Source: an uncultured Chlorobiaceae bacterium
Lineage (GTDB): Bacteria > Bacteroidota > Chlorobiia > Chlorobiales > Chlorobiaceae
NCBI GenBank assembly: GCA_903822595.1
Contig: CAIJPS010000074.1
Coordinates: forward strand, 1-64,000
DNA length: 64,000 bases
Direction of reading: 5' to 3'
Below, piece after piece: positions 7,992 through 29,686 of the stretch. The notes beneath the pieces were generated by a model. It was not told the origin of the DNA, did not search any database, and worked only from the letters and a program-made list of their open reading frames with translations. Within the stretch, counting starts at the first letter, position 1; each line of letters opens with the position of its first letter. The translations under genes and the position numbers were made by a program.

Positions 7992-8476
7992 GCGCCATTG
8001 TACTGCTTGATACTTCAGTCTACCTGAATATCCTCGATATCCCCGGAAAAAATCAGGATCGAACAACCATTCTGGACGAATTCAACAACAAAATTAATCA
8101 TAACGACTACTTCCTGCTCCCGATGGCGACAATATGGGAAACGGGAAATCATATTGCCGATTTGGCAAATGGTAAGCTCCGCTACCACTACGGCGAGAAA
8201 CTTGTCAAGGATGTTTCTATGGCTCTCAATGGAGATTCCCCTTATAGGCCCACTCACTTCCCGTCGCGAGAAGAGTTTTTCCTGTGGCTGAACGATTTCC
8301 CTGATTACGTACAACGAAATAAAAGCGACAAAAAAATACGGGAAGGGGTAAGCCTGAGCGACTTTTCAATTATCAAGGAATGGGAGGTTACCCGCAAACG
8401 ACACAACATGAGTCAGGTGCTCATCTGGTCTCTCGATTCTGATTTGGCAGGCTATGACAGCGGGATAAGGCTTTAA
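7988..8476 (+). CDS. PIN-like putative nuclease coupled to the AAA ATPase
   Basis: 162 residues from the ATG at 7988, which overlaps the ATPase stop. It begins IVLLDTSVYLNIL, a PIN-like first strand with an early aspartate. Further acidic residues at spacings compatible with a PIN fold are in MATIWETGNHI, SLSDFSIIKEWE and LDSDLAGY. The sequence is divergent from VapC and the fold is inferred from this pattern only. Coupling with an OLD/RecF-like ATPase suggests an ATP-gated nuclease effector. Confidence 0.6.
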   Translation: MSAIVLLDTSVYLNILDIPGKNQDRTTILDEFNNKINHNDYFLLPMATIWETGNHIADLANGKLRYHYGEKLVKDVSMALNGDSPYRPTHFPSREEFFLWLNDFPDYVQRNKSDKKIREGVSLSDFSIIKEWEVTRKRHNMSQVLIWSLDSDLAGYDSGIRL

Positions 8477-8536
8477 AGCATTTTTTGAGATCTTTCCTGT
8501 TGATAACCGTTTATATGAAATACGAAACAGCAGCAA

Positions 8537-9148
8537 TCACTCCATCGGCTGGCGAATGATGGTTTTCCAGTTTTTAGGGTCGGCTTTGCGGATGTCGCTC
8601 AGGTAAATTTCGTGATGTTTTCCGGCTCGCCGCCAGTTGCTCGCTTCAATAAAGTGGTGAAGCTTTTCAATCGTCGGACCCTCTTCAGAGAATGGCCCGA
8701 TGTGCATGATTTGCACGCACTCCCCTTCCTGCCATGATGCAAACCGCACCTTTGAAATTGCTGCCGGATTTTTTTTCTTTTTCACCTCCGCCAAGGCACT
8801 CTCGATAAGCTCAGCAGTGACAAAGGAAGGCTGCATGATCATTGCCGTCCACTTCCAGTTTGATTTGTCGTCAGATGAGAAGGTCGTCATATCATCGGCC
8901 CACCAGAGTCCTTCGAGGGGCATGACTCCGTAATCAATGGCGAGTTCCCCCTTCTTGAGCATGAACTTCACGGTATAGGAAACAGTAAACAATGCCTCAA
9001 TTGCCTCAGCATAAGAGTGCGAAGTATTTGGATCGCCCTCACCATCCACCATCAGAAAATTCATGGCGGGCACATCAACCTGAACCACCTCTTTGGCTGA
9101 AGCGTGATAGAGATGCTTCAACTCCTTCTTGACATCAACGGTTTCCAT
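8537..9148 (-). CDS. GyrI-like small-molecule-binding domain protein
   Basis: About 203 residues from the ATG at 9148, chosen because GGGGAG lies at proper spacing upstream. The sequence matches the stand-alone GyrI-like/SOUL-type effector-binding family: an N-terminal DVKKELKHLYHASAKEV, then PAMNFLMVDGEGDPNTS, and later a QIMHIGPFSEEGPTIEKLH segment. There is no helix-turn-helix. Such proteins bind hydrophobic small molecules or drugs. The ligand is unknown here. Confidence 0.75.
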   Translation of the reverse strand: METVDVKKELKHLYHASAKEVVQVDVPAMNFLMVDGEGDPNTSHSYAEAIEALFTVSYTVKFMLKKGELAIDYGVMPLEGLWWADDMTTFSSDDKSNWKWTAMIMQPSFVTAELIESALAEVKKKKNPAAISKVRFASWQEGECVQIMHIGPFSEEGPTIEKLHHFIEASNWRRAGKHHEIYLSDIRKADPKNWKTIIRQPME

Positions 9149-9265
9149 ACATACTCCCCAATTCACGATACTCAAAGCAATTTACCCAGCGTGCGCATCA
9201 GCGTAACGCGATAAACCAGCTTGATAAACCTGCAAGAGATCAGCACTTTCAAAAAAAATTCGGCG

Positions 9266-9282
9266 GTCCACCTTCGGTGGAC
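9266..9282 (-). terminator. Rho-independent terminator candidate for the signalling cluster
   Basis: On the minus strand a perfect seven-pair hairpin GTCCACC-GAA-GGTGGAC is followed after a few bases by eight T residues. It is the last hairpin downstream of the FGE-like gene and would end the long minus-strand cluster. Confidence 0.6.
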
Positions 9283-9301
9283 ATTTCTGTTGTCGGTTGC
9301 T

Positions 9302-9360
9302 ACCAGAACATTTTGGCGTGCGGCGGTTCGTCCCTCTCCGCCGCTCACCAAAATGTTGGT
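9302..9360 (-). repeat. Long imperfect inverted repeat downstream of the FGE-like gene
   Basis: Arms 9302-9326 and 9338-9360 are complementary over about 23 positions with a few mismatches (cores AACATTTTGG/CCAAAATGTT and GCGGCGG/CCGCCGC) around an 11-base loop. It starts about 47 bases past the stop codon of a candidate DGR target. It could be a DGR target hairpin, an mRNA stabiliser or part of a terminator. Confidence 0.65.
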
Positions 9361-9407
9361 ACTGCCCTCTCGCTCAAAAAACAAAGCCGGCATGAGCAGC
9401 CAACTGA

Positions 9408-10301
9408 CTACGGGACGAAAACAAGGCGGAAGCCAACGTCGCTGAACCGGCTGCCGGGGGTGATGCCGTTCCGATAAGCCGACCGACAGCCCCCGGCAGC
9501 GCTGCCCCAGCCCCCGCCACGAATAACACGGAAAGAACGCGTTGATGGCCCGGTGGGATTGGTAACAACACCTTGCGCTTTACATTCGTCATAATAGGTT
9601 TCACTGTACCAATCGCTGCACCACTCCCAGACATTACCATGCATATTGTACAGCCCGAACCGATTAGGTGCAAAACTGTTTACCGAAACAGTATTCTGCC
9701 GGTATACCCCTGTCGGATTATTATTGTAGGATCCGTTGCCATTATAGTTAGCCTGACCGGTCGTCAGGTTTTGTCCTGTATTGAACGGCGTTCTGCTGCC
9801 GGCACGACAGGCATACTCCCACTCCGCTTCAGTGGGCAAACGATACCTCTTACCCGTTTTTGCCGAGAGCGCTTTGCAGTAGGCCACAGCATCGTTCCAG
9901 CTCACATGCACAACAGGATGATTCTCTTCACTCTGAGGTCGAAGACTACCCGAGATTCCATGGCGCCAGTTTACCCCTGCTCTCTTCTCCCATTTTGTTC
10001 CATCCGAAATATAACTGCCATCTCCGTTTTCAGCATCGGTCAGGTACCCTTTTGCTGCCACGAATTTCCTGAACTCCCCAACCGTTACTTCATATTCGGC
10101 GATGTAAAAGTCACTCACTTTTACCTGATGCTGTGTCTCATCTTTAGAGTGGCCAACTTCACCGGCAGGACTCCCCATCATAAACGTGCCGCCAGGGATC
10201 AGCACAAACCCCACTGCATTCGCAGGCAATGCTCCGCCGAAAAAAATGACCGCCGCAACAAAAAGGGCTGAAACTGTGGAACAGATACGTTTTGGTTTCA
10301 T
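9408..10301 (-). CDS. Exported formylglycine-generating-enzyme-like (FGE-sulfatase) protein with a candidate DGR variable region
   Basis: 297 residues from the ATG at 10301. A signal peptide (cores VSALFVAAVIFF, cleavage after ANA) is followed by an FGE-sulfatase domain: VLIPGGTFMMGS, DFYIAEYEVTVGEF, HPVVHVSWNDAVAYC, RLPTEAEWEYACR, NMHGNVWEWCSDWY and GFRLVFVP. This family adopts a C-type-lectin-like fold. Most members without the catalytic cysteines are binding proteins rather than sulfatase activators. The last 35 codons have the RGGGW...CRSAYRN...GFRLV frame of DGR targets, and nearly all residues between the fixed ones use codons ending in C (GGC, AGC, AAC, ATC, TTC, GAC), as expected if AAC codons were mutagenised. 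It lies at the 3' end of the signalling cluster. Confidence 0.85.
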   Translation of the reverse strand: MKPKRICSTVSALFVAAVIFFGGALPANAVGFVLIPGGTFMMGSPAGEVGHSKDETQHQVKVSDFYIAEYEVTVGEFRKFVAAKGYLTDAENGDGSYISDGTKWEKRAGVNWRHGISGSLRPQSEENHPVVHVSWNDAVAYCKALSAKTGKRYRLPTEAEWEYACRAGSRTPFNTGQNLTTGQANYNGNGSYNNNPTGVYRQNTVSVNSFAPNRFGLYNMHGNVWEWCSDWYSETYYDECKAQGVVTNPTGPSTRSFRVIRGGGWGSAAGGCRSAYRNGITPGSRFSDVGFRLVFVP

Positions 10302-10339
10302 TTTTTGACCCACAAAAAAATGGTTAAAGGATTCAATGG

Positions 10340-11533
10340 TTAAAATGTTTTTACGTCAATTCTGGAGGGCTTTGCCGGAACAGATACAGGTACAAATACA
10401 GGTACAGATACCAGACGAGCGACCCGTTTTTTCTTGACATTCAGATGTTTACGGCTTACCAACTTTGGACTCTTTTCCTGAGGCGCTCCATTCTGCGGCT
10501 CCTCCCTTTTGATTGCTACTGTATCGACATGCACCGCAACCGGTGGCACAAAAACAGGAGCGGGAACTGACTCTTCAACCGACGCTTCAACAGGCTTTGG
10601 CGGATGATTGAACGCGAAGAGCCGCAGCGCAACCAGCAGCACCAGCACAGCCGCTCCGGCCATGACCCGTTTGTCGCGCAGCCACTTCATCCAGTCGGGT
10701 TGTGGAGGTGGCGGTGGCTTGAGCGCTTTGATAGCCTGCAAAAACTCTTCGCAGCTCTGGTAGCGCCGGTTACGATCTTTTGCCGTAGCCTTGTCGACAA
10801 CGGCCTGCATCCCTGACGATACATACTCGTAGATGCTCTTCATCCTTGGCAGAGGCTCCTTGACAATTTTGGACTGAATTTCAAAATCCTCCTCCGTTGC
10901 CGTATTATAGGGCGCTTTACCGGTAAGCATCTGGTGCAACACCACGCCAAGGGAGTAGATGTCAGTGCGCAGGTCGAGCGGTTCCCCCTGCTTGCTTTTG
11001 ATCTGCTCCGGGCTCATGTAGGATGGCGTCCCGGGGCTTTGGCCTGTCGCCGTTTCGCGGGCAAGTTTGGTATCTTTCGCAATCCCGAAATCGACCACCT
11101 TGATCTGATTCTCCCTGGTCATGAGGATGTTGGCTGGCTTGATATCGCGATGGATAACGCCGCTGCGGTGCACATAGGCAAAGGCTTCGAGCAATTTACC
11201 GAACAGCTCCTTGGTCTCCTCTTCCGGAATTGGGCCCCGGTGGCGGGTGATGTACTCCTCAAGATTCATCCCCTCGATATACTGCTGTATCAGCAAGAGT
11301 TTGTCGGGGTGGTAGTCAATCAAACTGACAATGCCGGGATGATCCAGTTTTGCCAGTGCTTTTGCCTCCCGCTCAAAGAGTGAGCGCACATAAGGATCCT
11401 CGGCAAAATGCGGCAGTAACGCCTTGATGGCCACCCGCTGCTCCGTTATCGGGTCAACGCCAAGCCAGACCCGGCTCATCCCGCCCTGGCCAAGTTCACG
11501 CTCGATGCGATATTTGAGTATCTGTTGTTCCAT
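10340..11533 (-). CDS. Transmembrane Ser/Thr protein kinase without a lectin domain
   Basis: 397 residues. The PknB-like kinase domain (about 8-270) has Gly-rich loop GQGGMS (15-20), VAIK (34-37), HRDIKPAN (128-135), DFG (148-150) and GTPSYMSPEQ. It is followed by the PPPPPQPDWMKWLRDKR linker and one membrane segment (about 290-310). The outer part is only about 85 residues, rich in P, V and K, ending in a basic stretch. It lacks the DUF1566 domain of its neighbours, so its sensor part is either absent or unstructured. All catalytic motifs are present, so it should be an active kinase. It is 38 bases downstream of the next kinase on the same strand. Confidence 0.92.
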   Translation of the reverse strand: MEQQILKYRIERELGQGGMSRVWLGVDPITEQRVAIKALLPHFAEDPYVRSLFEREAKALAKLDHPGIVSLIDYHPDKLLLIQQYIEGMNLEEYITRHRGPIPEEETKELFGKLLEAFAYVHRSGVIHRDIKPANILMTRENQIKVVDFGIAKDTKLARETATGQSPGTPSYMSPEQIKSKQGEPLDLRTDIYSLGVVLHQMLTGKAPYNTATEEDFEIQSKIVKEPLPRMKSIYEYVSSGMQAVVDKATAKDRNRRYQSCEEFLQAIKALKPPPPPQPDWMKWLRDKRVMAGAAVLVLLVALRLFAFNHPPKPVEASVEESVPAPVFVPPVAVHVDTVAIKREEPQNGAPQEKSPKLVSRKHLNVKKKRVARLVSVPVFVPVSVPAKPSRIDVKTF

Positions 11534-11571
11534 GGTTACGTTTGAGAGATCACAGAAAATTGGTCAAATTG

Positions 11572-13044
11572 TTAAAAATATCGGATGGCTCGAACGCGAA
11601 GTACATTCGTCTTATCGCCCTGGGTATTGTACCCGGCGGAAAAGTTTTGACCCCATGCGCCGCCCGTACTGTTCTCCGTAGAACTCCAGTAGTGCTTATC
11701 CGCAAAACCACCTACAACACCTTTACTGGAATACAGTTTATGCAGCTCATCTCTGGTTGGGAGATGCCAATCACGATAATTACCAATCACCAGACTATTA
11801 CAGGCAACGTTTGCGTCAGACCAGGTAAAACACCCTTCTCTATAACCATCAGATTGACCCGACATATCCGATGGTGCAGCAATCATACCGTGCAGCCTAC
11901 TTTCATCGAGATAAAAAATAATGCCTCCTCCATACTGCTCACCAATTTCATGCGAAACCGGTGCCGAAGAGCCCTCAAGATGGGCTTTTGCAGCGGGGGC
12001 TGAGGGCTCAATGAACGCCTCTGCTGCGGGAACTTCCCCTGGAGCATCATGTTTACCACTGCTCATTACCCCTGACACAACAATTACAAGCAGAACAATC
12101 ACTGCAAATGACACTGCAAATGACACTGCCTTCAGATTTACTGAAAAAGGAATGTTTTGTTGTGATGATTGAGGGATATTCTGTTGCGTTTGCGTCTTTG
12201 CTTGCGCTTGTAATTGCGGTGGTATCGGCGCCTTTATCGCTTGCATAAAATCGTTGCAGTTTCGGTACCGATCACCCTTCTCCTTCGCCGTTGCTTTATC
12301 GACTATCCTCTGCACCCTGTCCGACACGTACTCATAAGTACTCTTCATCCTCGGTAGCGGCTCCTTGACAATCTTGACCTGCACCTCAAATTCCGATTCC
12401 GTCTCCATATCGTAGGGCGCTTTCCCGCTCAGCATCTGATGCAACAGCACTCCCAACGAGTAGATATCAGTCCGTTCATCAACCTCCCGGCCATTGACTT
12501 GCTCAGGACTCATATAGGCTACGGTTCCCATCCGAACACCTGTCCTGGTGCGCAGGGTACCACTGCTTCCACCAGCAATTCTGGCAATGCCGAAATCTAC
12601 AACCTTGACCTGGTTGCCTTTTGTAATAAGAATATTTGAAGGCTTGATATCGCGGTGAATCACCTTATTGTCATGCGCATAGGCAAATGCCCCGAGTAAC
12701 TGGCAAAAGAGTTTTTCTGCCTCCTCTTCAGGAATCGGGCCTCTTTGCTTCGCGATATACTCCTCAAGGGTTATCCCTTCAATGTATTCCTGAACGAGAA
12801 TGAGACGTGGACCGATCTCTTCGTAGCGGATCAGGCAAACAATATTCGGATGACTGAGTTTAGCCATAAATTGCGCCTCCCTGCGAAACCTCTCACGCAG
12901 CTCATAGTGATTGGCCAGATGCGGCAGCAACTCCTTTATGGCCACTTTCTGGCCAGTCATCGAATCAACGCCAAGGTAAACCCGGCTCATCCCACCCTCT
13001 CCAAGAAAACGTTCTATCTGATAGTTCAGTATCTGTTGTTCCAT
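11572..13044 (-). CDS. Transmembrane Ser/Thr kinase with C-terminal DUF1566 lectin-like domain
   Basis: 490 residues. The kinase domain (8-270) has LGEGGMS, VAIK, HRDIKPSN, DFG and GTVAYMSPEQ, all intact. A Q-rich linker and a single membrane segment (about 310-332, VSFAVSFAVIVLLVIVVSGV) lead to an A/P/E-rich stalk and a DUF1566 domain (about 370-490: YGGGIIFYLDE, CFTWSDANVACNSL, WHLPTRDELHKLY, HYWSSTEN, RVRAIRYF). DUF1566 has a C-type-lectin-like fold and should lie in the periplasm, giving a receptor kinase. The last 40 codons align with the two recognised variable regions further along the cluster. Confidence 0.93.
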   Translation of the reverse strand: MEQQILNYQIERFLGEGGMSRVYLGVDSMTGQKVAIKELLPHLANHYELRERFRREAQFMAKLSHPNIVCLIRYEEIGPRLILVQEYIEGITLEEYIAKQRGPIPEEEAEKLFCQLLGAFAYAHDNKVIHRDIKPSNILITKGNQVKVVDFGIARIAGGSSGTLRTRTGVRMGTVAYMSPEQVNGREVDERTDIYSLGVLLHQMLSGKAPYDMETESEFEVQVKIVKEPLPRMKSTYEYVSDRVQRIVDKATAKEKGDRYRNCNDFMQAIKAPIPPQLQAQAKTQTQQNIPQSSQQNIPFSVNLKAVSFAVSFAVIVLLVIVVSGVMSSGKHDAPGEVPAAEAFIEPSAPAAKAHLEGSSAPVSHEIGEQYGGGIIFYLDESRLHGMIAAPSDMSGQSDGYREGCFTWSDANVACNSLVIGNYRDWHLPTRDELHKLYSSKGVVGGFADKHYWSSTENSTGGAWGQNFSAGYNTQGDKTNVLRVRAIRYF

Positions 13045-13340
13045 TATTACGCTTGAGAGATCATAAAAAATTGGTCAGCCTCATACCTGAAAAGCCGTCA
13101 TCATTACCGTAATGCCAGCAAGTCACCCCATAATCTCTGACAGTGAGTAGTGATTCACTTGCATCTGACTTTCTTTTCCTGCAACATCAATTTCAATGAA
13201 GAGATTAAGCGCTCCACAAGAATTGATATCGAAGAAAAACAAGTCCGGACGTTAAGTAATCAGGCTAATCTGACTCGATATAACGGAACAACTTATAACT
13301 GAACACCTTAGTATCGTCAACCTGCTCGCTGGAATCATCC

Positions 13341-14801
13341 TCAATCTATTCCATATATTTCCTTTATTTTCATATCACTATCAAAAACAAAACAGACCTT
13401 GCTATCTTTGACAGTAACTTGATTACGAATATTGCCTAAATATACAAATCTTGTGAACACGATGTATGTTGATTCGTTTTGCCTTTCAATATGAGAAATC
13501 GTGTTCTTTGAATAAGCAGTTATACTCCAGATATGCTGATATCTGTTATAGATTTGTTCATAAGTAGGGCTCAAGATATCCCAGTATCTGCTCATATTCT
13601 CGGATAAATACCTATTTATACCAGCAACATCCCTATTATCTTCAGCTTCTACAAAGCTTCTGATAATACTCACATATTCGCCGCTGCCCAGATCAGGAGC
13701 AGGGCTTTCAACTGCTGCCGGGGCTTCTGCGACAGGACCCTCGACTGGCACTTCTGCGGCGGGAACGGGAGCTGCTGCAGGAGCTGCTGGTGCCTCTATG
13801 GGTGCCTCAACCGGAGCGTTATGTTTACTGCGGCTCACTACCCCTGACACAACAAGAAATAGCACAACAATCACAGCAAGGAGCACTGCTTTCAGATTCA
13901 CAGGTACCGACGGTGGTGATGTAGAAATCTTCAGTTGCGGCTGTGGTTGAGGCTTCGCTTTCGCTTGCGATTGCGGTTGTGTCGGCACCTTTATCGCCTG
14001 CATAAAATCATTGCAGTTCCGGTACCGATCACCCGTCTCCTTTGCCGTCGCTTTATCAACTATTCTCTGCATGTTTTCCGACACATACTCATAGGTACTT
14101 TTCATCCTCGGCAACGGCTCCTTGACAATCTTGACCTGTACCTCAAATTCCGATTCCGTGTCCATATCATAGGGCGCTTTGCCTGTCAGCATCTGATACA
14201 GCAGCACGCCAAGTGAGTAGATATCCGTACTGTCATCAACCTCCCGGCCACTAACCTGCTCAGGGCTCATATAGGCCGGGGTTCCCATCCTGACACCCGT
14301 CTTGGTACGCAGGGCACCACTGCTTCCACCAGCAATTCTGGCAATGCCAAAATCAACCACCTTGACCTGATTGCCTTTTGTAATAAGAATATTTGAAGGC
14401 TTGATATCACGGTGAATCACCTTATTGTCATGCGCATAAGCAAATGCATCCAGTAACTGGCAAAAGAGTTCTTTTGCCTCATCTTCAGGAATCGGGCCTC
14501 TTTCCTTCGTTATATATTCTTCAAGGGTTATCCCTTCAATGTATTCCTGAACAAGAAAAAGACGTGTACCGATCTCTTCGTAGCGTATCAGGCGAACAAT
14601 ATGCTCATGATTGAGTTTCGCCATAAATTGGGCCTCCCGGCGAAACCGCTCACGCAGCTCATCGTGATTGGCCAGATGCGCCAGTAACTCTTTTATGGCC
14701 ACTTTTTGTCCTGTCTTCAAGTCGATGCCAAGGTAAACCCGGCTCATCCCTCCCTCTCCAAGAAGGCGCTCTATCTGATAATTCAGTATCCGTTGTTCCA
14801 T
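13341..14801 (-). CDS. Transmembrane Ser/Thr kinase with an NTF2-like C-terminal domain
   Basis: 486 residues. The kinase part is nearly identical in design to the 11.6-kb kinase (LGEGGMS, VAIK, HRDIKPSN, DFG, GTPAYMSPEQ). It is followed by one membrane segment (about 310-330) and an Ala/Pro-rich stalk. In place of DUF1566 it ends in about 110 residues (GEYVSIIRSFVEAEDNRDVA... FDSDMKIKEIYGID) that resemble an NTF2/SnoaL-like sensor fold; this assignment is from pattern only. The gene is the last member of a duplicated PP2C / FHA-DUF805 / kinase block. Confidence 0.9.
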   Translation of the reverse strand: MEQRILNYQIERLLGEGGMSRVYLGIDLKTGQKVAIKELLAHLANHDELRERFRREAQFMAKLNHEHIVRLIRYEEIGTRLFLVQEYIEGITLEEYITKERGPIPEDEAKELFCQLLDAFAYAHDNKVIHRDIKPSNILITKGNQVKVVDFGIARIAGGSSGALRTKTGVRMGTPAYMSPEQVSGREVDDSTDIYSLGVLLYQMLTGKAPYDMDTESEFEVQVKIVKEPLPRMKSTYEYVSENMQRIVDKATAKETGDRYRNCNDFMQAIKVPTQPQSQAKAKPQPQPQLKISTSPPSVPVNLKAVLLAVIVVLFLVVSGVVSRSKHNAPVEAPIEAPAAPAAAPVPAAEVPVEGPVAEAPAAVESPAPDLGSGEYVSIIRSFVEAEDNRDVAGINRYLSENMSRYWDILSPTYEQIYNRYQHIWSITAYSKNTISHIERQNESTYIVFTRFVYLGNIRNQVTVKDSKVCFVFDSDMKIKEIYGID

Positions 14802-14854
14802 AAGTTAAGTACCGCGCAGGAAGTGTTATTACGTAATATGCAATACAAGGAGTG

Positions 14855-15664
14855 CTACAAGGAAAAAGCCGGGATAATATTTCGCATATACTCAACATAT
14901 TGCCACATAAAATACAGATATGAAAGAAAATATAATACCGCTGCAATAATGGTATATTGCTTCAAGCCAGAATTATATTCAGGCTCCTCTCCATACTGAT
15001 TATATCCAACACTCCCTTTCAGAAAAAATATTTCTACGATATACCATATTCCCAAAAATGGCACTAAAGAGACAAGATGAAACCAGCCTGACTTGTTACG
15101 ATCATGACATCTTTTTACTGATAAAGCAAGCCCGGGCCAGATAAATAAAAATGAGAGAATAAAAAGCAAAGAAGTAGCTCCACCAAACGATAATAAATTA
15201 TAAGAAGCGACTTTCATTATCATGAGATAAAGGCCATAAACAATGAATTGAATAACACCAATAGATAGACTATATGTCCAATAGGTGGACCTGTTAATCC
15301 TTCCATTGAATGAAAAAAGTATATCCTTAAAATCTGTAGATTGGACAGAGGAATTTGATACCACTTTTACTGAAGAGATGCTACTTAATATTGTTTTTAT
15401 AGCAGGAGAAGGCAAGAGCGCATCAACTCTCTCCCATACAAGCGGAATTTTTCCAGCAAGTATGACTGGAGTACCATGTTCAATGGAGATCTCTTCATTA
15501 TGAACATTTCTGCCATTGATAACCGTCCCGTTCATGCTCATATCCCTATAAAAATAGGTTGCACCTGACAATGTTATTTCTGCATGAAGCCTGCTGATGA
15601 CATGATCAGGATCCGGAACAACGACATTGCATCCAGAATCCCTGCCAACTGTAATTTTTTTCAT
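14855..15664 (-). CDS. FHA domain fused to DUF805 membrane domain
   Basis: 269 residues. The N-terminal FHA phosphothreonine-binding domain (about 1-85) shows GRDSGCNVVVP, SRLHAEI and MNGTVING. A DUF805 membrane domain (about 115-262) starts FNGRINRSTYW, has several hydrophobic segments and the signature KRCHDRNKSGWFHL. The FHA part should bind phosphorylated partners at the inner membrane. It is flanked by a PP2C gene upstream and a kinase downstream; the same trio recurs at 17.4-21.2 kb. Confidence 0.9.
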   Translation of the reverse strand: MKKITVGRDSGCNVVVPDPDHVISRLHAEITLSGATYFYRDMSMNGTVINGRNVHNEEISIEHGTPVILAGKIPLVWERVDALLPSPAIKTILSSISSVKVVSNSSVQSTDFKDILFSFNGRINRSTYWTYSLSIGVIQFIVYGLYLMIMKVASYNLLSFGGATSLLFILSFLFIWPGLALSVKRCHDRNKSGWFHLVSLVPFLGIWYIVEIFFLKGSVGYNQYGEEPEYNSGLKQYTIIAAVLYFLSYLYFMWQYVEYMRNIIPAFSL

Positions 15665-15749
15665 TGCTATTATTCTGTTTTGTTAATAAGTTCAAAGTAT
15701 TTTTCATTACTTTCAATCCATTATTCCACTTATGGTGGTTTAAGATCGG

Positions 15750-17303
15750 CTAAAAATTCCGGACTGCCCGAACTCGATTATACCTTATCTTTGCATCTTT
15801 GAACTGCGTTCCATTGCGAAAGTCTGTGCTCGACGCAAAACGAGCAGTTTCCTGCGAGGAACTCCAGTAGCATTGATTTAATAAAGTTAATGAAGATAAC
15901 TTACGCTTCTGGCTATAGAGTGTTTTCAGCTCATCTTTGGTTGGCAAGCGCCAACCGTTATTTCCTCCGTTTTCATGTTTAAATAAAGCCATTGCATCAG
16001 ACCAAGTAAAAAGCCCTTCCTTCTGACCTGTAGAATGACCTCGCTTATCCGATTTGGCAACAATTAAACCATGATTGCCGAGAGGATCAATATTAATAAT
16101 GATGCCATCACCATACGGTTGGCCAATTATAAAAGGAGTTGATCGGGGTTGATGTGCAACAGCGTTATTTTTTTCCCGCAACAGTGCATCTCGCGCATTT
16201 GTTACTGCCTGGAGTACAACTTGCAGTGAATCTGATTTGTGACGTTCCTGTTTCATTTCAGCTTTTAAAGAATCAAGCCCACGTCCCGCCTGTTCAAGGG
16301 CAGTTCGAAGTGCGTCTTCAGTTTGTGTTGGCAACACATTTATCACGTTTGCTGGCGGTGGTGTTTTTTGAAATGAGGATAAGGCAATCCCATGCCGGAA
16401 CCATGTTGTTATTTTTTGACCAATAGTATTTCCGGATAAACCGCCTGAAGCCATAACGGCTAACCCGCCAAGCAAAAAGAGAATCATGATAACTCCTGCA
16501 AAAAGCAGCACCCTCTTGCTACCTTTTTTACCTTTGCTCTCAGACACACTTGTGTTAGCACTACCAGTAAATTTTACGAGCTGGAGCGTAATATTATCGA
16601 TACCACCGGCACGATTGGCAAGCAGAACAAGCTCTTTTGCCTTTTCATATAACGCACTCTCTGAGCATAAAACATCCTGAATCTTTTGATCACTGACCAT
16701 GCCGGTCAGACCATCTGTACAAAGAAGCACAATATCACCCTTCTGCGGCTTAAAGGGCTTTTGACAGAGTGAAGGGGGCTGCATCCGCTCCAGTCCAAGT
16801 GCATTGGTAATCTCATTTTTTCTTGGATGATTCTCTGCATCTTTTGCATTGATGGCTCCGGCATCGACCAAAGACTGTACGAATGAATGATCTTTTGTGA
16901 GTTGCTGGAGATGATTGTGGGTAAGCAAATAGATTCGGCTGTCCCCAACATGGGCGTAATAAAAGCAATCATCTTTCAGAAGCAGCGCAACACAGGTAGA
17001 GCCCATTCCTTTCAGTTCGGGATGCTCCCGTGCATAGTTGAGGATGACCTTGTTTGCATAGAGCAATGCCTCATTAAGCGCGTTGATCGGGTCGGGATCG
17101 ACCTTGTCGTTCAAACTTGAAATTATTGAGTCAACAGCAATCCGGGACGCTGTTTCGCCACCAGCATGACCACCCATGCCATCACAGACAACAACCACTT
17201 CACCATTAAGGGTCTCTCTGGTGCCATAATAATCCTCATTCACTTTTCGCACAATGCCAGCATCGGTTGCATTTCCTATCTCATAACTGACTTTTTTGTT
17301 CAT
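15750..17303 (-). CDS. PP2C-type phosphatase with transmembrane segment, coiled coil and DUF1566 domain
   Basis: 517 residues. The N-terminal PP2C/Stp1 domain (about 1-245) has metal-binding motifs CDGMGGHAGGE, GDSRIY, CTDGLTGM and GGIDNIT, all intact. A membrane segment (about 268-290) is followed by a coiled-coil stretch (about 325-375, LRTALEQAGRGLDSLKAEMK) and a DUF1566 domain (about 388-517: YGDGIIINID, WRLPTKDELKTLY, CYWSSSQET, RVRAVRNF). It is therefore a receptor-like phosphatase with a periplasmic lectin-like sensor, opposing the receptor kinases around it. Confidence 0.93.
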   Translation of the reverse strand: MNKKVSYEIGNATDAGIVRKVNEDYYGTRETLNGEVVVVCDGMGGHAGGETASRIAVDSIISSLNDKVDPDPINALNEALLYANKVILNYAREHPELKGMGSTCVALLLKDDCFYYAHVGDSRIYLLTHNHLQQLTKDHSFVQSLVDAGAINAKDAENHPRKNEITNALGLERMQPPSLCQKPFKPQKGDIVLLCTDGLTGMVSDQKIQDVLCSESALYEKAKELVLLANRAGGIDNITLQLVKFTGSANTSVSESKGKKGSKRVLLFAGVIMILFLLGGLAVMASGGLSGNTIGQKITTWFRHGIALSSFQKTPPPANVINVLPTQTEDALRTALEQAGRGLDSLKAEMKQERHKSDSLQVVLQAVTNARDALLREKNNAVAHQPRSTPFIIGQPYGDGIIINIDPLGNHGLIVAKSDKRGHSTGQKEGLFTWSDAMALFKHENGGNNGWRLPTKDELKTLYSQKRKLSSLTLLNQCYWSSSQETARFASSTDFRNGTQFKDAKIRYNRVRAVRNF

Positions 17304-17439
17304 AGTATTGTTTCTATGTTAACATTATAAACAGATGCTCTACACAGCTATAGTCTGCAGTTTGAGAACATCGTTGTCAGAAGAGTGATTAATTGTGGTA
17401 ACTCTCCTGAGTAGTCGTCTGGTGGTATAAAGTATATGA

Positions 17440-18906
17440 CTAAAATGACCGCACTGCGCGAACTCCAAGGCTGGCTGACTTAATGCACGGGGCTTGGCTC
17501 CCATCTGAGAAGGCATGGATCCATGCGAGATCTGCACCACTCTTCGTAGAACTCCAGTAGACGTCGCTGTCCAACACTAAAACGCTGACAACATTTTTCG
17601 TGTGATCAAGTTTATTTAGCTCATTTTTAGTTGGAAGGCGCCAATCACTAAATCCATTTTTTATCAATTTTCTACATTCCACTTTTGCCTCTTCCCATGT
17701 AACATGCCCTGGAATATCCGTTGTTGCAGCAACCAGACCATGCTGACCAGTTTCATCGACATAAAAAATAATGCCTCCTCCATACCGTTCACCAATTTCA
17801 CGTGAAACCGTTACCGCTGGAGCCTCGACTGGCACTTCTGCGACAGGTGCGGCAGCGGGAACTTCAGCTGCGAGGGCAGGAGCAGGGGGCTCAACGAATG
17901 CGTCTGGTGCAGGTGCTGCGGGAGCCTCAACTGGCGCTTCTACGGGGGCCTCAACCGGTGCTTTATGTATGCCCTTGCTCATTACTCCTGACACAACAAG
18001 AACAAGCATCACTATCACAGCAATTGCAACTGCTTTCAGATTAACTGGTTGTGGAGAGGGGGTCGGTGGGGGAGGCGGCGGCGGTACAGTCATCTTAATC
18101 GCCTGCATAAAATCATTGCAGTTCCGGTACCGATCAACCTTCTCCTTCGCTGTTGCTTTATCCACTATCCGCTGCATCCTGTCCGACACATACTCATAAA
18201 TACTCTTCATCCTCGGCAACGGCTCCTTGACAATCTTGACTTGTACCTCAAATTCCGATTCCGTATCAATATTGTACGGTGCTTTCCCGGTCAGCATCTG
18301 ATGCAACAACACTCCCAATGAGTAGATATCTGTTCGATCATCAACCTCACGGCCATTTACCTGCTCAGGGCTCATATAGGCTACGGTTCCCACACGAACG
18401 CCCGTCTTGGTGCGCAAGGTACCGCTGCTTCCACCAGCTATTTTGGCAATACCAAAATCAACAACCTTGACCTGGTTGCCTTTTGTAATAAGAATATTTG
18501 AGGGCTTGATATCCCTGTGGATCACATCATTGTCATGCGCATAAGCAAATGCATCAAGCAACTGGCAGAAGAGTTCTCTTGCTTCCTGCTCAGGAATCGG
18601 GCCTTTTTCCTTCGTTATATACTCCTCAAGGTTCACACCTTCAATGTATTCCTGAACAAGAAAAAGACGGGTTCCTATCTCTTCGTAGCGGATCAGACGA
18701 ACAATATGGTGATGGTTCAGTTTAGCCAGAAGTTGAGCCTCCCGGCGAAACCGCTCACGCAAGTCATCATTATTGGCCAGATGCGCCAGTAATTCCTTGA
18801 TTGCCACTTTTTGGCCTGTCACCGAATCTACCCCAAGATAGACCAGGCTCATCCCGCCCTCTCCAAGAAGGCGCTCTATCTGATAATTCAGTATCCGTTG
18901 TTCCAT
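17440..18906 (-). CDS. Transmembrane Ser/Thr kinase with C-terminal DUF1566 lectin-like domain
   Basis: 488 residues. Intact kinase domain (LGEGGMS, VAIK, HRDIKPSN, DFG, GTVAYMSPEQ), polyproline linker, one membrane segment (about 293-312), then a stalk made of repeated PVEAP units (about 318-370) and a DUF1566 domain (about 373-488: YGGGIIFYVDETGQHGL, WRLPTKNELNKL, VYWSSTKSG, GVRAVRSF). Its leader and N-terminal half resemble the kinase ending at 14801, so the two arose by duplication. Its variable-like tail differs strongly from that copy's C-terminus, showing sensor-domain exchange. Confidence 0.93.
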   Translation of the reverse strand: MEQRILNYQIERLLGEGGMSLVYLGVDSVTGQKVAIKELLAHLANNDDLRERFRREAQLLAKLNHHHIVRLIRYEEIGTRLFLVQEYIEGVNLEEYITKEKGPIPEQEARELFCQLLDAFAYAHDNDVIHRDIKPSNILITKGNQVKVVDFGIAKIAGGSSGTLRTKTGVRVGTVAYMSPEQVNGREVDDRTDIYSLGVLLHQMLTGKAPYNIDTESEFEVQVKIVKEPLPRMKSIYEYVSDRMQRIVDKATAKEKVDRYRNCNDFMQAIKMTVPPPPPPPTPSPQPVNLKAVAIAVIVMLVLVVSGVMSKGIHKAPVEAPVEAPVEAPAAPAPDAFVEPPAPALAAEVPAAAPVAEVPVEAPAVTVSREIGERYGGGIIFYVDETGQHGLVAATTDIPGHVTWEEAKVECRKLIKNGFSDWRLPTKNELNKLDHTKNVVSVLVLDSDVYWSSTKSGADLAWIHAFSDGSQAPCIKSASLGVRAVRSF

Positions 18907-19076
18907 AACTTAAGTACCGTGCAGGAAGTGTTTTTATAAAATAAACACCAGGGTAAAAAAAACGTTCAAATCAATAGAGCAAACTAATCTTCGTGTCCTA
19001 TAAATGTGCAACAACAAGTTGTTTCGTAATTGCAAGTTTTTTCAACACGACTTCTTCGTGTCTGGTCTTATTAATA

Positions 19077-19850
19077 CTACGAGATCAATTGGTGTGCAGC
19101 GCCTAACCATATAAAGTATATATATGAAAAAACAAATAAAACAACAGCAATAACTGTATATTGCTTCATATCCGTATTATACTCAGGCTCATTTCCATAC
19201 TGATTGGATCCATTACTACCTTTCAGAAAATAGATTTCAACAAAATACCAAATACTCAGTAATGGAACTAACGCAACAAGAAAAAACCAGCCAGACTTAT
19301 TACGATCATGACATCTTTTTACTGACAATGCAAGCCCAGGCCAAACGGCAGCAAGTAAAAGCAGCCAATATAGCACAATAAACAATTCTTTATTAACCAT
19401 AAAAGCAAAACTCAAAAGAATAAGATTAATTGCACCAATAGCTAAACTGTACGTCAAATAAGTTGATCTGTTAACTCTTCCTTTAAAAGAGAATAATAAC
19501 TCCTTAAAATCAACCGACTGTAAATATGAATTGGGCCCACTTGTTTTTCCTTTCTGAACATCTGGATATTTTGTTTTTTGAACGGGACAAGGCAAGAGTG
19601 CATCAACTCTCTCCCATATAAGCGGAATCTTTCCGGCAAGTATGACTGGAATACCATACTCAATAGAGATCTCTTCATTATGAACTTTTCTGCCATTGAT
19701 AACCGTACCGTTCATACTCATATCCCTATAGAAATAGGTTACACCAGACAATGTTATTTCTGCATGTACCCTGCTGATAACAGGCTCAAGATTAGGATCA
19801 GAAACAACGATATCGCATCCAGAATCTCGTCCAACTGTGATTTTTTTCAT
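19077..19850 (-). CDS. FHA-DUF805 membrane protein, paralogue of the 14.9-kb gene
   Basis: 257 residues: FHA domain (GRDSGCDIVVSDP, SRVHAEI, MNGTVING) and DUF805 (FKGRVNRSTYLTYS, KRCHDRNKSGWFFL). It aligns with the protein at 14855-15664 almost from end to end, with most changes in the linker. It lies between a PP2C gene and a kinase, as in the other block. The stretch is noticeably A+T-rich. Probable role: phosphopeptide-dependent membrane partner of the adjacent kinase/phosphatase pair. Confidence 0.9.
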   Translation of the reverse strand: MKKITVGRDSGCDIVVSDPNLEPVISRVHAEITLSGVTYFYRDMSMNGTVINGRKVHNEEISIEYGIPVILAGKIPLIWERVDALLPCPVQKTKYPDVQKGKTSGPNSYLQSVDFKELLFSFKGRVNRSTYLTYSLAIGAINLILLSFAFMVNKELFIVLYWLLLLAAVWPGLALSVKRCHDRNKSGWFFLVALVPLLSIWYFVEIYFLKGSNGSNQYGNEPEYNTDMKQYTVIAVVLFVFSYIYFIWLGAAHQLIS

Positions 19851-19902
19851 AGTTATAAAGAAGTATTGATAGGAATTTCAACGTATTATTTTATTTTTTC
19901 AA

Positions 19903-21237
19903 TCAATCATCATGATTATTATTGTGGCCTTCTGGAGTCGATAATTCCTGTGAACCACTTTGAGCTTCCTTTGATAAGGTTCCCATATTGACACCATCGG
20001 GTACTGAATGCTTCTGTTTGTCAGTTCCATATAAAGGATTCTCACCTTGTACATTTGGCATTGTTGGATCAGACACCGTTAAGTCTTGTGCTGTTGTATT
20101 ATTGGCACCTTTCTTTTTCTTACGAGAAGAACGTACGTCCCCTACTTGATGCCTTGAATTGTATGTCGGACCTATATATTCCACTTTTTTTTCAGCAAGC
20201 ACTTCCCCCTCTACAGCCACACGGCTTTGATATGGAGAAGTTATACTTTTACTCTCTGTTGGTTTGCTGGATTTATTTTTTTGTGATTTATCAGCAACAA
20301 TTGCCGCATGTTTGTTGTTCTGTCCTGATAAATCATTACGCAAATCTGTGATTTTTTTGCTGATAATTGGCCCATACTCACTTTGTGATGCCATAAATCC
20401 AACAGCCGTCAATAGAAGCATTATTCCTGTCAAAGAAACCGTCGTGCGTACTATTTTTTTTCGTACGACTCCCCTCTTTTTTACCGCCACCCCACCAGTA
20501 AACTTAACGATCTGAACCGTCACATTATCATTGCCTCCGGCATGATTCGCCTGCTCAACAAGTTCTTTTGACTTGTCGTATAAAGAAGAATTTGAGCGCA
20601 ATACCTCTTTAATCTGATCATTCCGGACCATTCCGCTCAAACCATCACTGCACAAGAGTATGATATCATCTTTATGAGGAACATAGGGTTCATCACATAA
20701 TGAAGGAGGTTGCATACGTTCAAGTCCAAGAGCATTGGTAATTTCATTTTTTCTTGGATGACTTTCCGCCTCTATTTCGGTGATTGCTCCAGCATCAACT
20801 AAAGATTGCACGAATGAATGATCTTTGGTAAGCTGACGTAAATTACCGTCACTGTAAACATAGATCCTGCTATCTCCAACATGAGCATAATAGCAGTAAT
20901 CATTTTTTATGAGAAGCGCAACACAGGTGGAGCCCATACCTTTAAGTTCAGGGTGCTGACTCGCATAATCAAGAATAACCTTGTTGGCATAAATGATGGA
21001 ATCAGACAAGGCATTCAGCGGAATCTGATATTTTTTTTCATTCAGATAATTGATTATCGAATCAACAGCAAGTCTTGATGCTTTTTCACCGCCGGCATGG
21101 CCACCCATACCGTCGCACACTAAAACGATATCACCATTTATTGTATCTTTTTTACCGTAGTAATCTTCATTGACTTTTCGTACCTTGCCAACATCAGTTG
21201 CATTTCCTATTTCATAATGTTTGATTGTATTATTCAT
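19903..21237 (-). CDS. PP2C-type phosphatase with a transmembrane segment and disordered tail
   Basis: 444 residues. The PP2C domain (about 1-245) has CDGMGGHAGGE, GDSRIY, CSDGLSGM and GGNDNVT. It is followed by a basic stretch and a membrane segment (about 262-282), then about 160 residues of low-complexity polar sequence (N, Q, S, K-rich). Unlike its paralogue at 15.75 kb it lacks a DUF1566 domain. First gene of the second PP2C / FHA-DUF805 / kinase block. Confidence 0.92.
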   Translation of the reverse strand: MNNTIKHYEIGNATDVGKVRKVNEDYYGKKDTINGDIVLVCDGMGGHAGGEKASRLAVDSIINYLNEKKYQIPLNALSDSIIYANKVILDYASQHPELKGMGSTCVALLIKNDYCYYAHVGDSRIYVYSDGNLRQLTKDHSFVQSLVDAGAITEIEAESHPRKNEITNALGLERMQPPSLCDEPYVPHKDDIILLCSDGLSGMVRNDQIKEVLRSNSSLYDKSKELVEQANHAGGNDNVTVQIVKFTGGVAVKKRGVVRKKIVRTTVSLTGIMLLLTAVGFMASQSEYGPIISKKITDLRNDLSGQNNKHAAIVADKSQKNKSSKPTESKSITSPYQSRVAVEGEVLAEKKVEYIGPTYNSRHQVGDVRSSRKKKKGANNTTAQDLTVSDPTMPNVQGENPLYGTDKQKHSVPDGVNMGTLSKEAQSGSQELSTPEGHNNNHDD

Positions 21238-21353
21238 TTTATTATTATCTGCATTGACATTATAAAAACGTTATCTTTTCAATAACAACTTGAATACCGG
21301 GGAATATGCATTAAACGCAACAAAAAAACTTCCTCCTTACGATATCATGCAGA

Positions 21354-21938
21354 TCAGTCATGTATCAAATGAAATGGTACCATAATAAAATACATTCGGA
21401 TTCCACCTATTGTTATGACACACTCTTTTTTCAACTCACCTTCATTTTTCATCTCTCCATCAATATAAGTTCCGTTTGTTGAAAACTCATCTTTAAACAA
21501 AAAAGAGTTATTTCTGTATAATATTGTTAAATGTTTTCCTGAAACTGCAGGTACATTTTCTATAATAACATCACAACCTCTTTCACTGCCAACAAGATTT
21601 TTTCCTTCAAATAACTTGAATAACTTTCCCTGGCAATGCAGATCATAAGAAACAAGAAATCCGACAAGCTTCCTTTCTCTTGCGGCCTCTTCTCCTGGCA
21701 AAATACAGGTCCTGTTTAACGCGACAGTTTTATTTTCATCAGAAAATGGATGACTGACAATATTTGTTTTTTCTGATCCTGCATTATTTTTTCCACCAAC
21801 AATAGCTGTTTTCATAGCATCAGATATTTTAGTTTTACAGGTTGCATCACTAGATGATGATTTTGGGCAGAATGGACAAGAGATCAACTTTTCCGCGTCA
21901 TACTGGTGACCATTAACACATGTCTTGATGTGAGGCAT
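21354..21938 (-). CDS. FHA protein with N-terminal zinc-ribbon-like motif
   Basis: 194 residues. It begins with KTCVNGHQYDAEKLISCPFC, in which C-x2-GH and CPFC form a probable zinc knuckle. A linker follows, then an FHA domain (about 105-190: LVGSERGCDVIIE, VSGKHLTILYR, FSTNGTYIDGE). There is no membrane segment, so it is likely a soluble phosphothreonine adaptor. It starts 6 bases after the stop of the upstream FHA-protease gene, so the two are probably cotranscribed. Confidence 0.85.
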   Translation of the reverse strand: MPHIKTCVNGHQYDAEKLISCPFCPKSSSSDATCKTKISDAMKTAIVGGKNNAGSEKTNIVSHPFSDENKTVALNRTCILPGEEAARERKLVGFLVSYDLHCQGKLFKLFEGKNLVGSERGCDVIIENVPAVSGKHLTILYRNNSFLFKDEFSTNGTYIDGEMKNEGELKKECVITIGGIRMYFIMVPFHLIHD

Positions 21939-21944
21939 AAAAAG

Positions 21945-23492
21945 TTATTCCTTTTTTAAGTTATTAAGTTTCACCACATGTTTTGCTAAAATTGCCATAT
22001 TAAAAGTCTGTGTGTTTTGTACTTGCTGATTATTGATACCAATAAGCTCCCCTCTTTCGTTAAAAATCGGAGAGCCACTTGATCCTGGTATTGTAGGCAG
22101 ATTGTGACCAAAATTGATGTCATCAGGTATCCTTGAAAGTGTACCTTCTTCAAAATTCACCTTTAAACCCTCACTGGTCTGTCCTAACTCAAAACCAGCC
22201 GGATAACCAATCATAATCAATTTCATGCCTGGTTTGAGCCATTTTTTATCAGTAACCGCATTATCAAGATTAATAAAATATTTAACTTTTACAGGTAGTG
22301 ACTTGTTTTTAACCTGAATCATAGCAACATCATTTTTATTATCCCCTGAATCTCGTAAAAACAAACAACCAAGTAAATCACTTTTGGAATTAATATACGT
22401 ATCATTAAGCCCAGCGCCAAGATAGACTGTTTTTCCTGTAACCGTAACAGTTAATTTATTTAAATCGTAAACGCTTTTGACCAAGGGCAAGACGTTAATT
22501 TTTGCACCTATTAAATTACCAATCATTGCGGTAGATTTCTCCTGTTCAAGGTTCGCAATATTTTTGGCAATTTCATTCTCAACAAACTCTTTTGCAGCTT
22601 TGGTGTCCTCATCATAATACCAGGGAAGGGCCACATGACGGTTTGTCATTATTTTCCCATCAACCGACACAAAAAAACCAGTACCGGTTATAGTTATCGG
22701 TTCATTTTTTCCAGAATTATAAAGTTCAAACCCTTTTTCTGTTTTTGTTAAATATATTTTGTTATCGTTACCAAGATCAACTTCATACACATAGTCATGG
22801 TAAATGATGACAACTGAATTTGCATATTTTTCCATAACATTAACCGGTAGAATTCTGTCTTTGAAAAAATAGAGCGCGATACCGCAGAGAAGCACAACGG
22901 CCGCAAGTACCGGTATCAAATATTTTTTTGTAACCGATTTAATCCCATAAACATACTCTTCCCATTTGATCTCATGTCCTTGGGCAAAAACTATTCGGTC
23001 ACCTTTTCCTATTTTTTGATACTTTACTGGCAAACCATTAACGGTCGTCCCGTTGGTTGACTTCTTGTCTTTAAGAAATACATCTCCATTATTGAACACC
23101 ACAATATCTGCATGCTCTCCTGACACATCCTCATAAGGCAGGACGATCGTATTTGATGGATTTCTGCCAATGGTAACCGTTTTTCTGACATCACCAGTTA
23201 TCTGTTTATGATCATGATTCCCATCAGAGGATGAACCTTTCAGATATTGCCAGATATCAATTCTATAATGGATCCCAAGTCGAACATCATCATCTGGAGT
23301 GATAACCTCCTCTTCTGATCCTTCAAGACGTTTACCGTTGATAAAGGTACCATTCGTGGAGGCAAGATCGCTGATCCTGACTTTACCGTCGTTATCAATC
23401 TTGAGGAGTGCATGCCATTTGGAGACATCTTCTTCGCGGGGACTGATAACGATATCATTGTCAAGAGAACGACCGATTTTAATAATTTTCAT
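21945..23492 (-). CDS. Tandem FHA domains, transmembrane segment and trypsin-like serine protease
   Basis: 515 residues. FHA1 (about 1-85: GRSLDNDIVISP, VSKWHALL, STNGTFINGK), FHA2 (about 105-175: GRNPSNTIVLPYEDVSGEHA, STNGTTVNG), one membrane segment (about 192-212), then an HtrA/DegP-like S1 protease domain. The probable catalytic triad is His in MTNRHVAL, Asp in KNDVAMIQ and Ser in PGSSGSPIF. No PDZ domain is seen. The protease should be periplasmic and the FHA domains cytoplasmic, which would couple phosphorylation inside to proteolysis outside. It is the first gene of the phosphatase/FHA run. Confidence 0.9.
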   Translation of the reverse strand: MKIIKIGRSLDNDIVISPREEDVSKWHALLKIDNDGKVRISDLASTNGTFINGKRLEGSEEEVITPDDDVRLGIHYRIDIWQYLKGSSSDGNHDHKQITGDVRKTVTIGRNPSNTIVLPYEDVSGEHADIVVFNNGDVFLKDKKSTNGTTVNGLPVKYQKIGKGDRIVFAQGHEIKWEEYVYGIKSVTKKYLIPVLAAVVLLCGIALYFFKDRILPVNVMEKYANSVVIIYHDYVYEVDLGNDNKIYLTKTEKGFELYNSGKNEPITITGTGFFVSVDGKIMTNRHVALPWYYDEDTKAAKEFVENEIAKNIANLEQEKSTAMIGNLIGAKINVLPLVKSVYDLNKLTVTVTGKTVYLGAGLNDTYINSKSDLLGCLFLRDSGDNKNDVAMIQVKNKSLPVKVKYFINLDNAVTDKKWLKPGMKLIMIGYPAGFELGQTSEGLKVNFEEGTLSRIPDDINFGHNLPTIPGSSGSPIFNERGELIGINNQQVQNTQTFNMAILAKHVVKLNNLKKE

Positions 23493-23640
23493 GGGAGCCT
23501 ATTTTGGGGGTGATAAATGTAGGGATACTTTATGCGCTGGTCATTATTATCCGGCTTATAAAGAACTTGTCCCAATTATTATTACAGGTCCATCGTCAAA
23601 AAAATTGACAGGGGGCTCAACGTCCTTAACCTCAGGTTGA

Positions 23641-25348: not shown

Positions 25349-25554
25349 ATCTCCTTTTTGAGCAATGAACTATGACAATCGGGCAAACACAATGTAAATA
25401 ATGATATTAAACATCCAAAACACTTTATAAGGATCGGGGGAGCGAGAAAAAAAATATCCACATACTTATTGTCATTTCAATTCCGATTTGCAGTGAATCA
25501 TCTTGACATTGCACTCTTCTGATATAACGATGAGTCAACCGATTCGTCACTCGT

Positions 25555-25581
25555 CATGTTCATGTTCATGTTCATGTTCAT
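25555..25581. repeat. Tandem hexamer CATGTT
   Basis: Four and a half exact copies of CATGTT lie just past the stop of the truncated kinase-like gene (minus strand). A simple-sequence repeat outside the reading frame. Confidence 0.9.
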
Positions 25582-25591
25582 CAGACAAAAA

Positions 25592-26488: not shown

Positions 26489-26686
26489 ATCTCCTTTTTA
26501 TGCAAATATTTGAGGGCCATCGACAGTAAACAGGGCAAGCAATGTAATTAAACAGTCAAAAAAAAAGCAAAAGAATCAGGATGGTTTGAATAACAACAAG
26601 TGACGGCAAGAGGGTCCATTTTCGCATTTACGCTTCGTCGTTTTTACGTTTTACGTGTATCTTGCGCTCTTGACATCCTCTTTCCG

Positions 26687-27148: not shown

Positions 27149-27188
27149 ACACGTCTCGATACACCGGTAAATCATAGTACAATGCCAT
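27145..27188 (-). pseudogene. avd: 5' stub of avd joined to the reverse transcriptase remnant
   Basis: The first 15 codons (MALYYDLPVYRDVYR) are identical to the longer avd copy beginning at 29668. The sequence then joins RT DNA out of frame. In DGRs the usual order is VR, avd, template repeat, RT. The deletion between avd codon 15 and the RT C-terminus therefore probably removed the template repeat as well. Confidence 0.75.
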
Positions 27189-27206
27189 ACCACAAAATTA
27201 TTTTTG

Positions 27207-27226
27207 ACAGGGGGCGAGCCCCCTGT
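27207..27226 (-). other. GC-rich hairpin downstream of variable region 1
   Basis: Perfect palindromic arms ACAGGGGG / CCCCCTGT with a four-base loop, 26 bases past the kinase stop codon. DGR targets characteristically have a short GC hairpin just 3' of the variable region that promotes retrohoming. An equivalent hairpin follows variable region 2. It could also act in termination. Confidence 0.75.
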
Positions 27227-27252
27227 ACCCCCCTGTGAAATGGTTAAATAGA

Positions 27253-29668: not shown

Positions 29669-29686
29669 ACCACAAAATTATTTTTG

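What the first reader, a model, noticed from the sequence alone, without database searches (positions are those of the whole stretch)
9302..9530. FGE-like protein ends in a third candidate variable region with its own inverted repeat
In the last 35 codons the fixed residues (RGG, W, CRSA, R, GFRLV) alternate with codons that nearly all end in C (GGC, AGC, AAC, ATC, TTC, GAC), as if derived from AAC. A long inverted repeat (arms 9302-9326 and 9338-9360) lies about 47 bases downstream of the stop. FGE-sulfatase domains are among the commonest DGR targets. No second copy is in the window, so the adenine test cannot be done here.
Basis: partly seen in the sequence, partly recalled or inferred. Interest (0 to 1): 0.7.

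Follow-up and report, generated by a model that had tools for sequence, protein, structure and literature searches.

The report
Hypermutated receptor tail with homing hairpin
The end of this secreted protein is a real hypermutation target of a diversity-generating retroelement, rewritten from an A-rich template elsewhere in the same genome, and the inverted repeat behind it is a conserved hairpin that accompanies nearly every such target in this group of green sulfur bacteria and probably marks the place for rewriting.

Summary
The finding holds. The last 123 nt of the FGE-sulfatase gene (9408-9530, minus strand) are the variable region (VR) of a diversity-generating retroelement (DGR). The missing template lies on another contig of the same genome (C28:42432-42555), overlapping the end of a DGR-type reverse transcriptase gene. 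VR and template differ at 19 of 30 template adenines and at 0 of 93 other bases (p 6e-15). An ortholog in a related species is 93% identical in gene body and kinase, 95% in the 3' flank, but differs at 20 of 30 adenine positions.

The inverted repeat is real and the less ordinary part: a ~24-bp hairpin with a 9-nt loop, 46 nt behind the VR. A model of it hits 34 genomes of the genus, behind a VR or VR end at 113 of 120 sites. Stems differ completely but stay paired; the loop (RAGGGACG) hardly changes; a divergent version occurs in the sister genus. It resembles in role, not in dimensions, the BPP-1 hairpin needed for efficient homing. The VR is a new member of a known kind; the hairpin family looks like a new variant of a known element. 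Homing itself was not tested.

The parts
9408..9530 (-). DGR variable region (VR), 123 nt, ending in TTCGTCCCGTAG (IMH-like 3' end, includes the stop codon)
   Evidence: 19/30 template-A mismatches, 0/93 non-A mismatches to TR C28:42432-42555
9411..10301 (-). target gene: FGE-sulfatase / C-type-lectin-fold protein, 297 aa, N-terminal signal-peptide-like segment
   Evidence: Pfam PF03781 E 2.6e-66; PDB matches include 2y3c, E 1.3e-23, and 5nxl, E 2.2e-36
9362..9407 (-). 46-nt flank between VR and hairpin (TCAGTTGGCTGCTCATGCCGGCTTTG...), conserved behind VRs and different behind templates
   Evidence: alignments; the template flank is CTCAAAAGCAAAGTC...
9301..9361 (-). VR-associated hairpin: arms 9337-9361 and 9301-9327, loop 9328-9336 (core GAGGGACG)
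9251..9282 (-). second small hairpin GTCCACCGAAGGTGGAC followed by a T run: terminator-like end of the transcript (inferred from sequence)
   Evidence: sequence; fold; similar small hairpins in many related loci
10343..11533 (-). Ser/Thr protein kinase directly upstream on the same strand; likely operon partner of the diversified protein
   Evidence: Pfam PF00069 E 1.1e-51; pair conserved in the related species G033 at 93% identity

Best explanation
The tail of the FGE gene is a remote target of the DGR on contig C28. The template RNA is copied by the DGR reverse transcriptase with errors opposite adenines, and the cDNA replaces the VR; 14 residues of the C-terminal, C-type-lectin-fold end of the protein now differ from what the template would encode. 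The protein has a signal-peptide-like start and its gene follows a Ser/Thr kinase gene, so it may be a hypervariable sensor. The hairpin 46 nt behind the VR marks the target and helps homing, as in phage BPP-1: it is present at VRs and absent at templates, which would keep transfer one-way. Shown: template, RT, adenine-only differences, hypervariability between species, selected stem pairing, conserved loop, fixed distance. Inferred: active homing in this strain, action from another contig, role of the hairpin in homing, ligand sensing with the kinase.
For: Exactly three A-rich templates in the genome, at C28, C63 and C54, each overlapping or beside RT sequence. The C28 RT's best PDB match is 8ub7, E 2.2e-39, which I know to be the BPP-1 DGR RT; it has IGNLTSQ and YMDD; an HRDC-domain gene precedes it. 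Window VR: 19/30 A, 0/93 non-A changed. Ortholog G033: kinase 93.4%, gene body 93.2%, 3' flank 95.2%, VR 79.7%, 20/30 A positions different. Hairpin: 39 distinct sequences, 90.6% of cells paired against 74.5% when shuffled, 150 double-change cells against 48, 18 of 24 pairs with changes on both sides, slid controls 31-46% paired; confirmed on 69. 113 of 120 model hits lie behind a VR or its 3' end, nearly all 40-47 nt away. Seven of 8 sense-strand hairpins of the own genome follow VRs. Genomes with the template-RNA spacer have the hairpin in 25/26 cases, those without in 9/39, p 2e-9. Guo 2011 (PMC3240598): in BPP-1 stem structure but not stem sequence matters, and loop sequence matters - the pattern of conservation seen here.
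Against: No homing was observed; template and window VR sit on different contigs, so remote action is inferred. The hairpin is larger and farther from the VR than in the phage DGRs of Guo 2011 (7-10 bp stem, 4-nt GRNA loop, 4-34 bp). Some VRs lack it (C54, C57, C43 in this genome), and seven hairpins lack a VR (mostly with truncated flanks, one beside a transposase-like frame). Copying of VR plus flank as one cassette explains part of the association.
Confidence: 0.85

Rival explanations
1. The tail is a DGR variable region, but the hairpin acts on the mRNA (3' end processing, stability or termination) and not in homing; it travels with VRs because VR plus 3' flank was copied as one cassette.
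For: G-T cells outnumber A-C cells 93 to 28 in the paired columns, so the sense strand seems to be the one that folds, as in mRNA; the hairpin lies in the presumed 3' UTR, before a terminator-like hairpin.
Against: A separate terminator-like hairpin follows it; the loop is conserved while stems turn over; it is linked to presence of the template-RNA spacer (25/26 against 9/39) and to VR lineage (TGAC-type stems go with C63-type VRs). The G-T bias fits single-stranded sense DNA too, and one column pair gives 37 of the 93 cells.
Confidence: 0.2
2. The tail is a former VR: the gene was diversified in the past, but the DGR no longer acts on it.
For: The template is on another contig and remote action is not shown here.
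Against: Zero non-A differences from the present template points to recent copying; VRs of the same genome that look decayed, C57 and C43, have 18 and 27 non-A differences. The hairpin is intact.
Confidence: 0.08
3. Ordinary diversifying selection or recombination among paralogs shaped the tail, with no retroelement.
For: FGE paralogs with similar tails are abundant in the genome.
Against: Differences fall only at template adenines (p 6e-15), and the AAC-rich template lies at an RT gene.
Confidence: 0.01
4. The inverted repeat is a mobile palindrome or MITE/REP-like repeat that landed here by chance.
For: It occurs in many copies; one own-genome copy (C57:10594-10663) sits beside a transposase-like frame without a VR.
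Against: Fixed distance and orientation behind the VR at 113 of 120 sites, and unrelated stem sequences with compensatory changes.
Confidence: 0.03

Closest known systems
BPP-1 DGR target hairpin/cruciform (Guo et al. 2011, PMC3240598)
   Same: inverted repeat behind the VR and beyond the VR/TR homology; stem sequence free, loop sequence constrained; spacing to the VR somewhat flexible
   Different: here about 24 bp of stem with a conserved A.A/A.G mismatch, 9-nt loop RAGGGACG(A/C), 46 nt behind the VR; there 7-10 bp GC-rich stem, 4-nt GRNA loop, 4-34 bp
DGRs of green sulfur bacteria: Pelodictyon phaeoclathratiforme BU-1 (4 VRs), Chlorobium phaeobacteroides DSM 266 (2 VRs) (DiGReF, PMC3521204)
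   Same: same bacterial group, several VRs per template
   Different: the paper does not describe this hairpin family (text search); here three templates and about ten VRs on seven contigs
Thiohalocapsa PB-PSB1 DGRs (PMC10907252)
   Same: many DGR targets, remote targets, FGE/CLec domains joined to kinase, NACHT and phosphoesterase domains
   Different: different phylum; no such hairpin in the text searched; there diversification in natural samples was shown
Treponema denticola variable protein TvpA (PDB 2y3c)
   Same: FGE/C-type-lectin-fold protein, known to me as a DGR target
   Different: sequence only distantly related

Membership tests
Diversity-generating retroelement (target gene of one) | A-rich template repeat in the same genome | tested here: met
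   C28:42432-42555; also C63:6083-6206 and C54:385-508
Diversity-generating retroelement (target gene of one) | VR/TR differences confined to template adenines | tested here: met
   19/30 A, 0/93 non-A
Diversity-generating retroelement (target gene of one) | DGR-type reverse transcriptase next to the template | tested here: met
   RVT_1 hit at C28; best PDB match 8ub7; motif IGNLTSQ; no RT tree was built
Diversity-generating retroelement (target gene of one) | accessory protein gene (Avd or HRDC type) | tested here: met
   HRDC domain E 6.7e-14 in the gene before the RT; Avd not searched
Diversity-generating retroelement (target gene of one) | target has a C-type-lectin fold with the VR at its C-terminus | tested here: met
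   PF03781 and PDB matches by sequence; no model was predicted
Diversity-generating retroelement (target gene of one) | VR varies between close relatives while flanks do not | tested here: met
   ortholog G033; one pair of species, and the G033 copy carries a 1-nt deletion in its VR
Diversity-generating retroelement (target gene of one) | mutagenic retrohoming activity | not testable with these tools
   needs culture or reconstitution
BPP-1-type target hairpin/cruciform | inverted repeat behind the VR, stem sequence free but paired, loop conserved | tested here: met
BPP-1-type target hairpin/cruciform | 7-10 bp GC-rich stem, 4-nt GRNA loop, 4-34 bp from the VR | tested here: not met
   about 24 bp, 9-nt loop, first pair 43-50 nt from the VR; so not filed as that type, only as working like it
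BPP-1-type target hairpin/cruciform | required for efficient homing | not testable with these tools
   mutagenesis needed
Known Rfam element | match to a curated RNA family | tested here: not met
   no match up to E 1 in window 8400-13100; one weak sub-threshold match in the DGR loci, elsewhere

The most novel reading that the evidence does not exclude
The hairpin loop recognises the DGR by base pairing: its core GGGACGAA is the exact complement of TTCGTCCC, the last bases before the final G-TAG of the VR and of the template. In 86 of 109 hairpins 7-8 nt match and in 13 more 6 nt. The loop could pair with the template RNA's 3' end, or with the VR end on the same sense strand to hold the integration site open. 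This would be a sequence rule by which a DGR finds targets anywhere in the genome. It is post hoc: both partners are nearly invariant, so covariation cannot be tested, and loops AAGCGGAG and GAAGGATG break it.
Probability: 0.2. Interest if true: 0.75.

Novelty: new variant of a known kind. Interest (0 to 1): 0.5.

Why it matters
How a DGR finds its target and leaves its template alone is not fully understood, and most evidence comes from one phage. Here is a natural set of more than a hundred target hairpins in one genus, with different stems, one loop, one spacing, and their templates. It gives a search model for remote DGR targets that have no RT nearby, and a concrete loop motif to mutate. 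It also adds a secreted, hypermutated protein paired with a kinase in a green sulfur bacterium.

Tried and rejected
The Lcl_C-domain kinase tails of the window (11560-11960) were searched for an A-rich template; only paralogs in the window and short matches elsewhere came back. Rfam gave nothing useful. The idea that the hairpin is a free repeat was rejected by its linkage to VRs. Covariation of loop and VR end could not be tested: the sister genus has the same TTCGTCCC end and a loop with the GGGACG core. Structure prediction was not run; the fold is clear by sequence. In one search the two non-A mismatches of each C28-type VR are the two bases behind the stop codon, outside the VR, and are not counted (compare). 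Locus C54:1874 failed in that script and was read.

Full report
What is there. The gene 9411-10301 (minus strand) encodes a 297-aa FGE-sulfatase-domain protein with a signal-peptide-like start. Directly upstream on the same strand is a Ser/Thr kinase gene (10343-11533). The window lies on contig C74 of a 3.04-Mb, 109-contig assembly.

Template and adenine test. A search of the own genome with the tail gave twelve further places with E below 1e-9. Three of them are AAC-rich templates: C28:42432-42555, C63:6083-6206 and C54:385-508; a pattern search found exactly these three. The C28 and C63 templates lie at the end of an RT gene, and the C54 template follows the last 80 codons of a third RT cut by the contig end. 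The window VR matches the C28 template with 19 of 30 adenines changed and none of 93 other bases. The three VRs on C28 also show no non-A change. The two C63 VRs fit the C63 template best, C49 fits C28 with four non-A changes, and C57 and C43 look decayed. DGR RT identity rests on RVT_1, the PDB match to 8ub7 at E 2.2e-39 and the motifs IGNLTSQ and YMDD. An HRDC-domain gene lies before the RT.

Variation between relatives. The ortholog in genome G033 keeps the kinase-FGE pair at 93% identity and the 3' flank at 95%, but the VR is at 80%, with 20 of 30 adenine positions different against 5 of 93 others in a simple alignment. Some of the five come from a 1-nt deletion in the G033 copy, which by itself has 16 A and 3 non-A differences from the C28 template. 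So the tail is not invariant.

The inverted repeat. In gene orientation the hairpin is 9361-9301 with loop 9336-9328. The same element lies behind other VRs of this genome. In the C63 VRs the stem is a different sequence (TGACAAAAGAGTTG...CAACTCTTTT..GTCA) around the same loop. A covariance model from 39 distinct sequences finds 8 sense-strand hairpins in the own genome, seven of them behind VRs, and hits in 34 of 98 genomes of the order, all in this genus. I fetched 119 of these places besides the window: of 120, 109 have a VR upstream, 4 run into a contig end but show the VR's last bases, and 7 have none, mostly with a truncated flank. The gap from stop codon to model start is 40-47 nt in nearly all; the first pair is three bases later. 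At least five unrelated stem families occur. Pair counts with shuffled and slid controls show that the stem is selected. In the sister genus (G065, G078; also the Chlorobaculum record L088) VRs carry a hairpin with a further stem (GATGGCG..CCGGGGGC..GGCGC) and the loop core AAGGGACG; the model search, with its stricter filters, missed these.

Reading of the hairpin. Three facts favour a role in homing. It is at targets and not at templates. It is nearly confined to genomes that carry the template-RNA spacer: 25 of 26 with it, 9 of 39 without (draft genomes, so absences are soft). And its stem families follow VR lineages, though common descent alone would do that. In BPP-1 a hairpin at this place is needed for efficient homing; its stem may be another paired sequence but its loop may not be changed (PMC3240598). 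A reconstituted BPP-1 system in E. coli confirmed strong but not absolute dependence and proposed that the structure keeps the target open for the cDNA (PMC12875486). Here G-T cells outnumber A-C cells 93 to 28, which suggests that the sense strand is the folded one; that is the strand to which the cDNA must anneal, but it is also the mRNA strand, so the mRNA rival stays open. One column pair contributes 37 of the 93.

Loop and VR end. The loop core GGGACGAA is the complement of TTCGTCCC at the VR and template 3' end. Shuffled VR ends reach 8 nt in 0.6% of trials, and none of 802 other upstream 30-nt windows did. Loops of the AAGCGGAG type do not fit. I report it as a hypothesis only.

Known or new. 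DGRs with several VRs were reported for Pelodictyon phaeoclathratiforme and Chlorobium phaeobacteroides (PMC3521204), and remote FGE/CLec targets joined to kinase and NACHT domains for Thiohalocapsa (PMC10907252). The VR of the window is therefore a new member of a known kind. I found no description of this hairpin family in the open papers searched; subscription papers and supplements were not searched, and Guo et al. mention unpublished inverted repeats behind nearly all VRs. I call the hairpin a new variant of a known kind.

Noticed in passing
L162 (G000:C28:33500-49287): The DGR locus carries two large diversified proteins: phosphoesterase-NACHT-FGE (1094 aa) and a 791-aa protein with a C-terminal FGE domain, domain sets known from bacterial conflict systems.
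   Followed up: partly
G000:C54:1-510 (L164): A third template with a partly changed 3' end (TTCGTTTCGTAG) behind an RT cut by the contig end; the VR at C54:1874 lacks the hairpin.
   Followed up: partly
behind the templates, e.g. G000:C28:42556-42710: A strongly conserved spacer (AGGACGAGCCGGATAGCCGTTTCGAAGA) ending in a terminator-like stem and T run; probably the 3' part of the template RNA. Found in 26 of 65 genomes of the genus, no Rfam match. Its TAGGACGAGCC resembles the hairpin loop.
   Followed up: partly
L355 and L357 hairpins: In two hairpins a REP-like palindrome (CTTCGATACGG...CCTACTCAG.GACCG) is inserted into the loop.
   Followed up: no
G000:C57:10594-10663 (L165) and G010:C146: Hairpins without a VR; a transposase-like reading frame ends about 50-60 nt upstream, as if an insertion replaced the VR.
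   Followed up: partly
window 10340-30100: Row of paralogous Ser/Thr kinase genes, at least one with an Lcl_C (DUF1566) tail; no A-rich template for that tail was found.
   Followed up: partly
L377 (G022:C24), L392 and L394 (G078): VRs whose hairpin is deleted or half replaced: possible decay after loss of the DGR or by rearrangement.
   Followed up: partly
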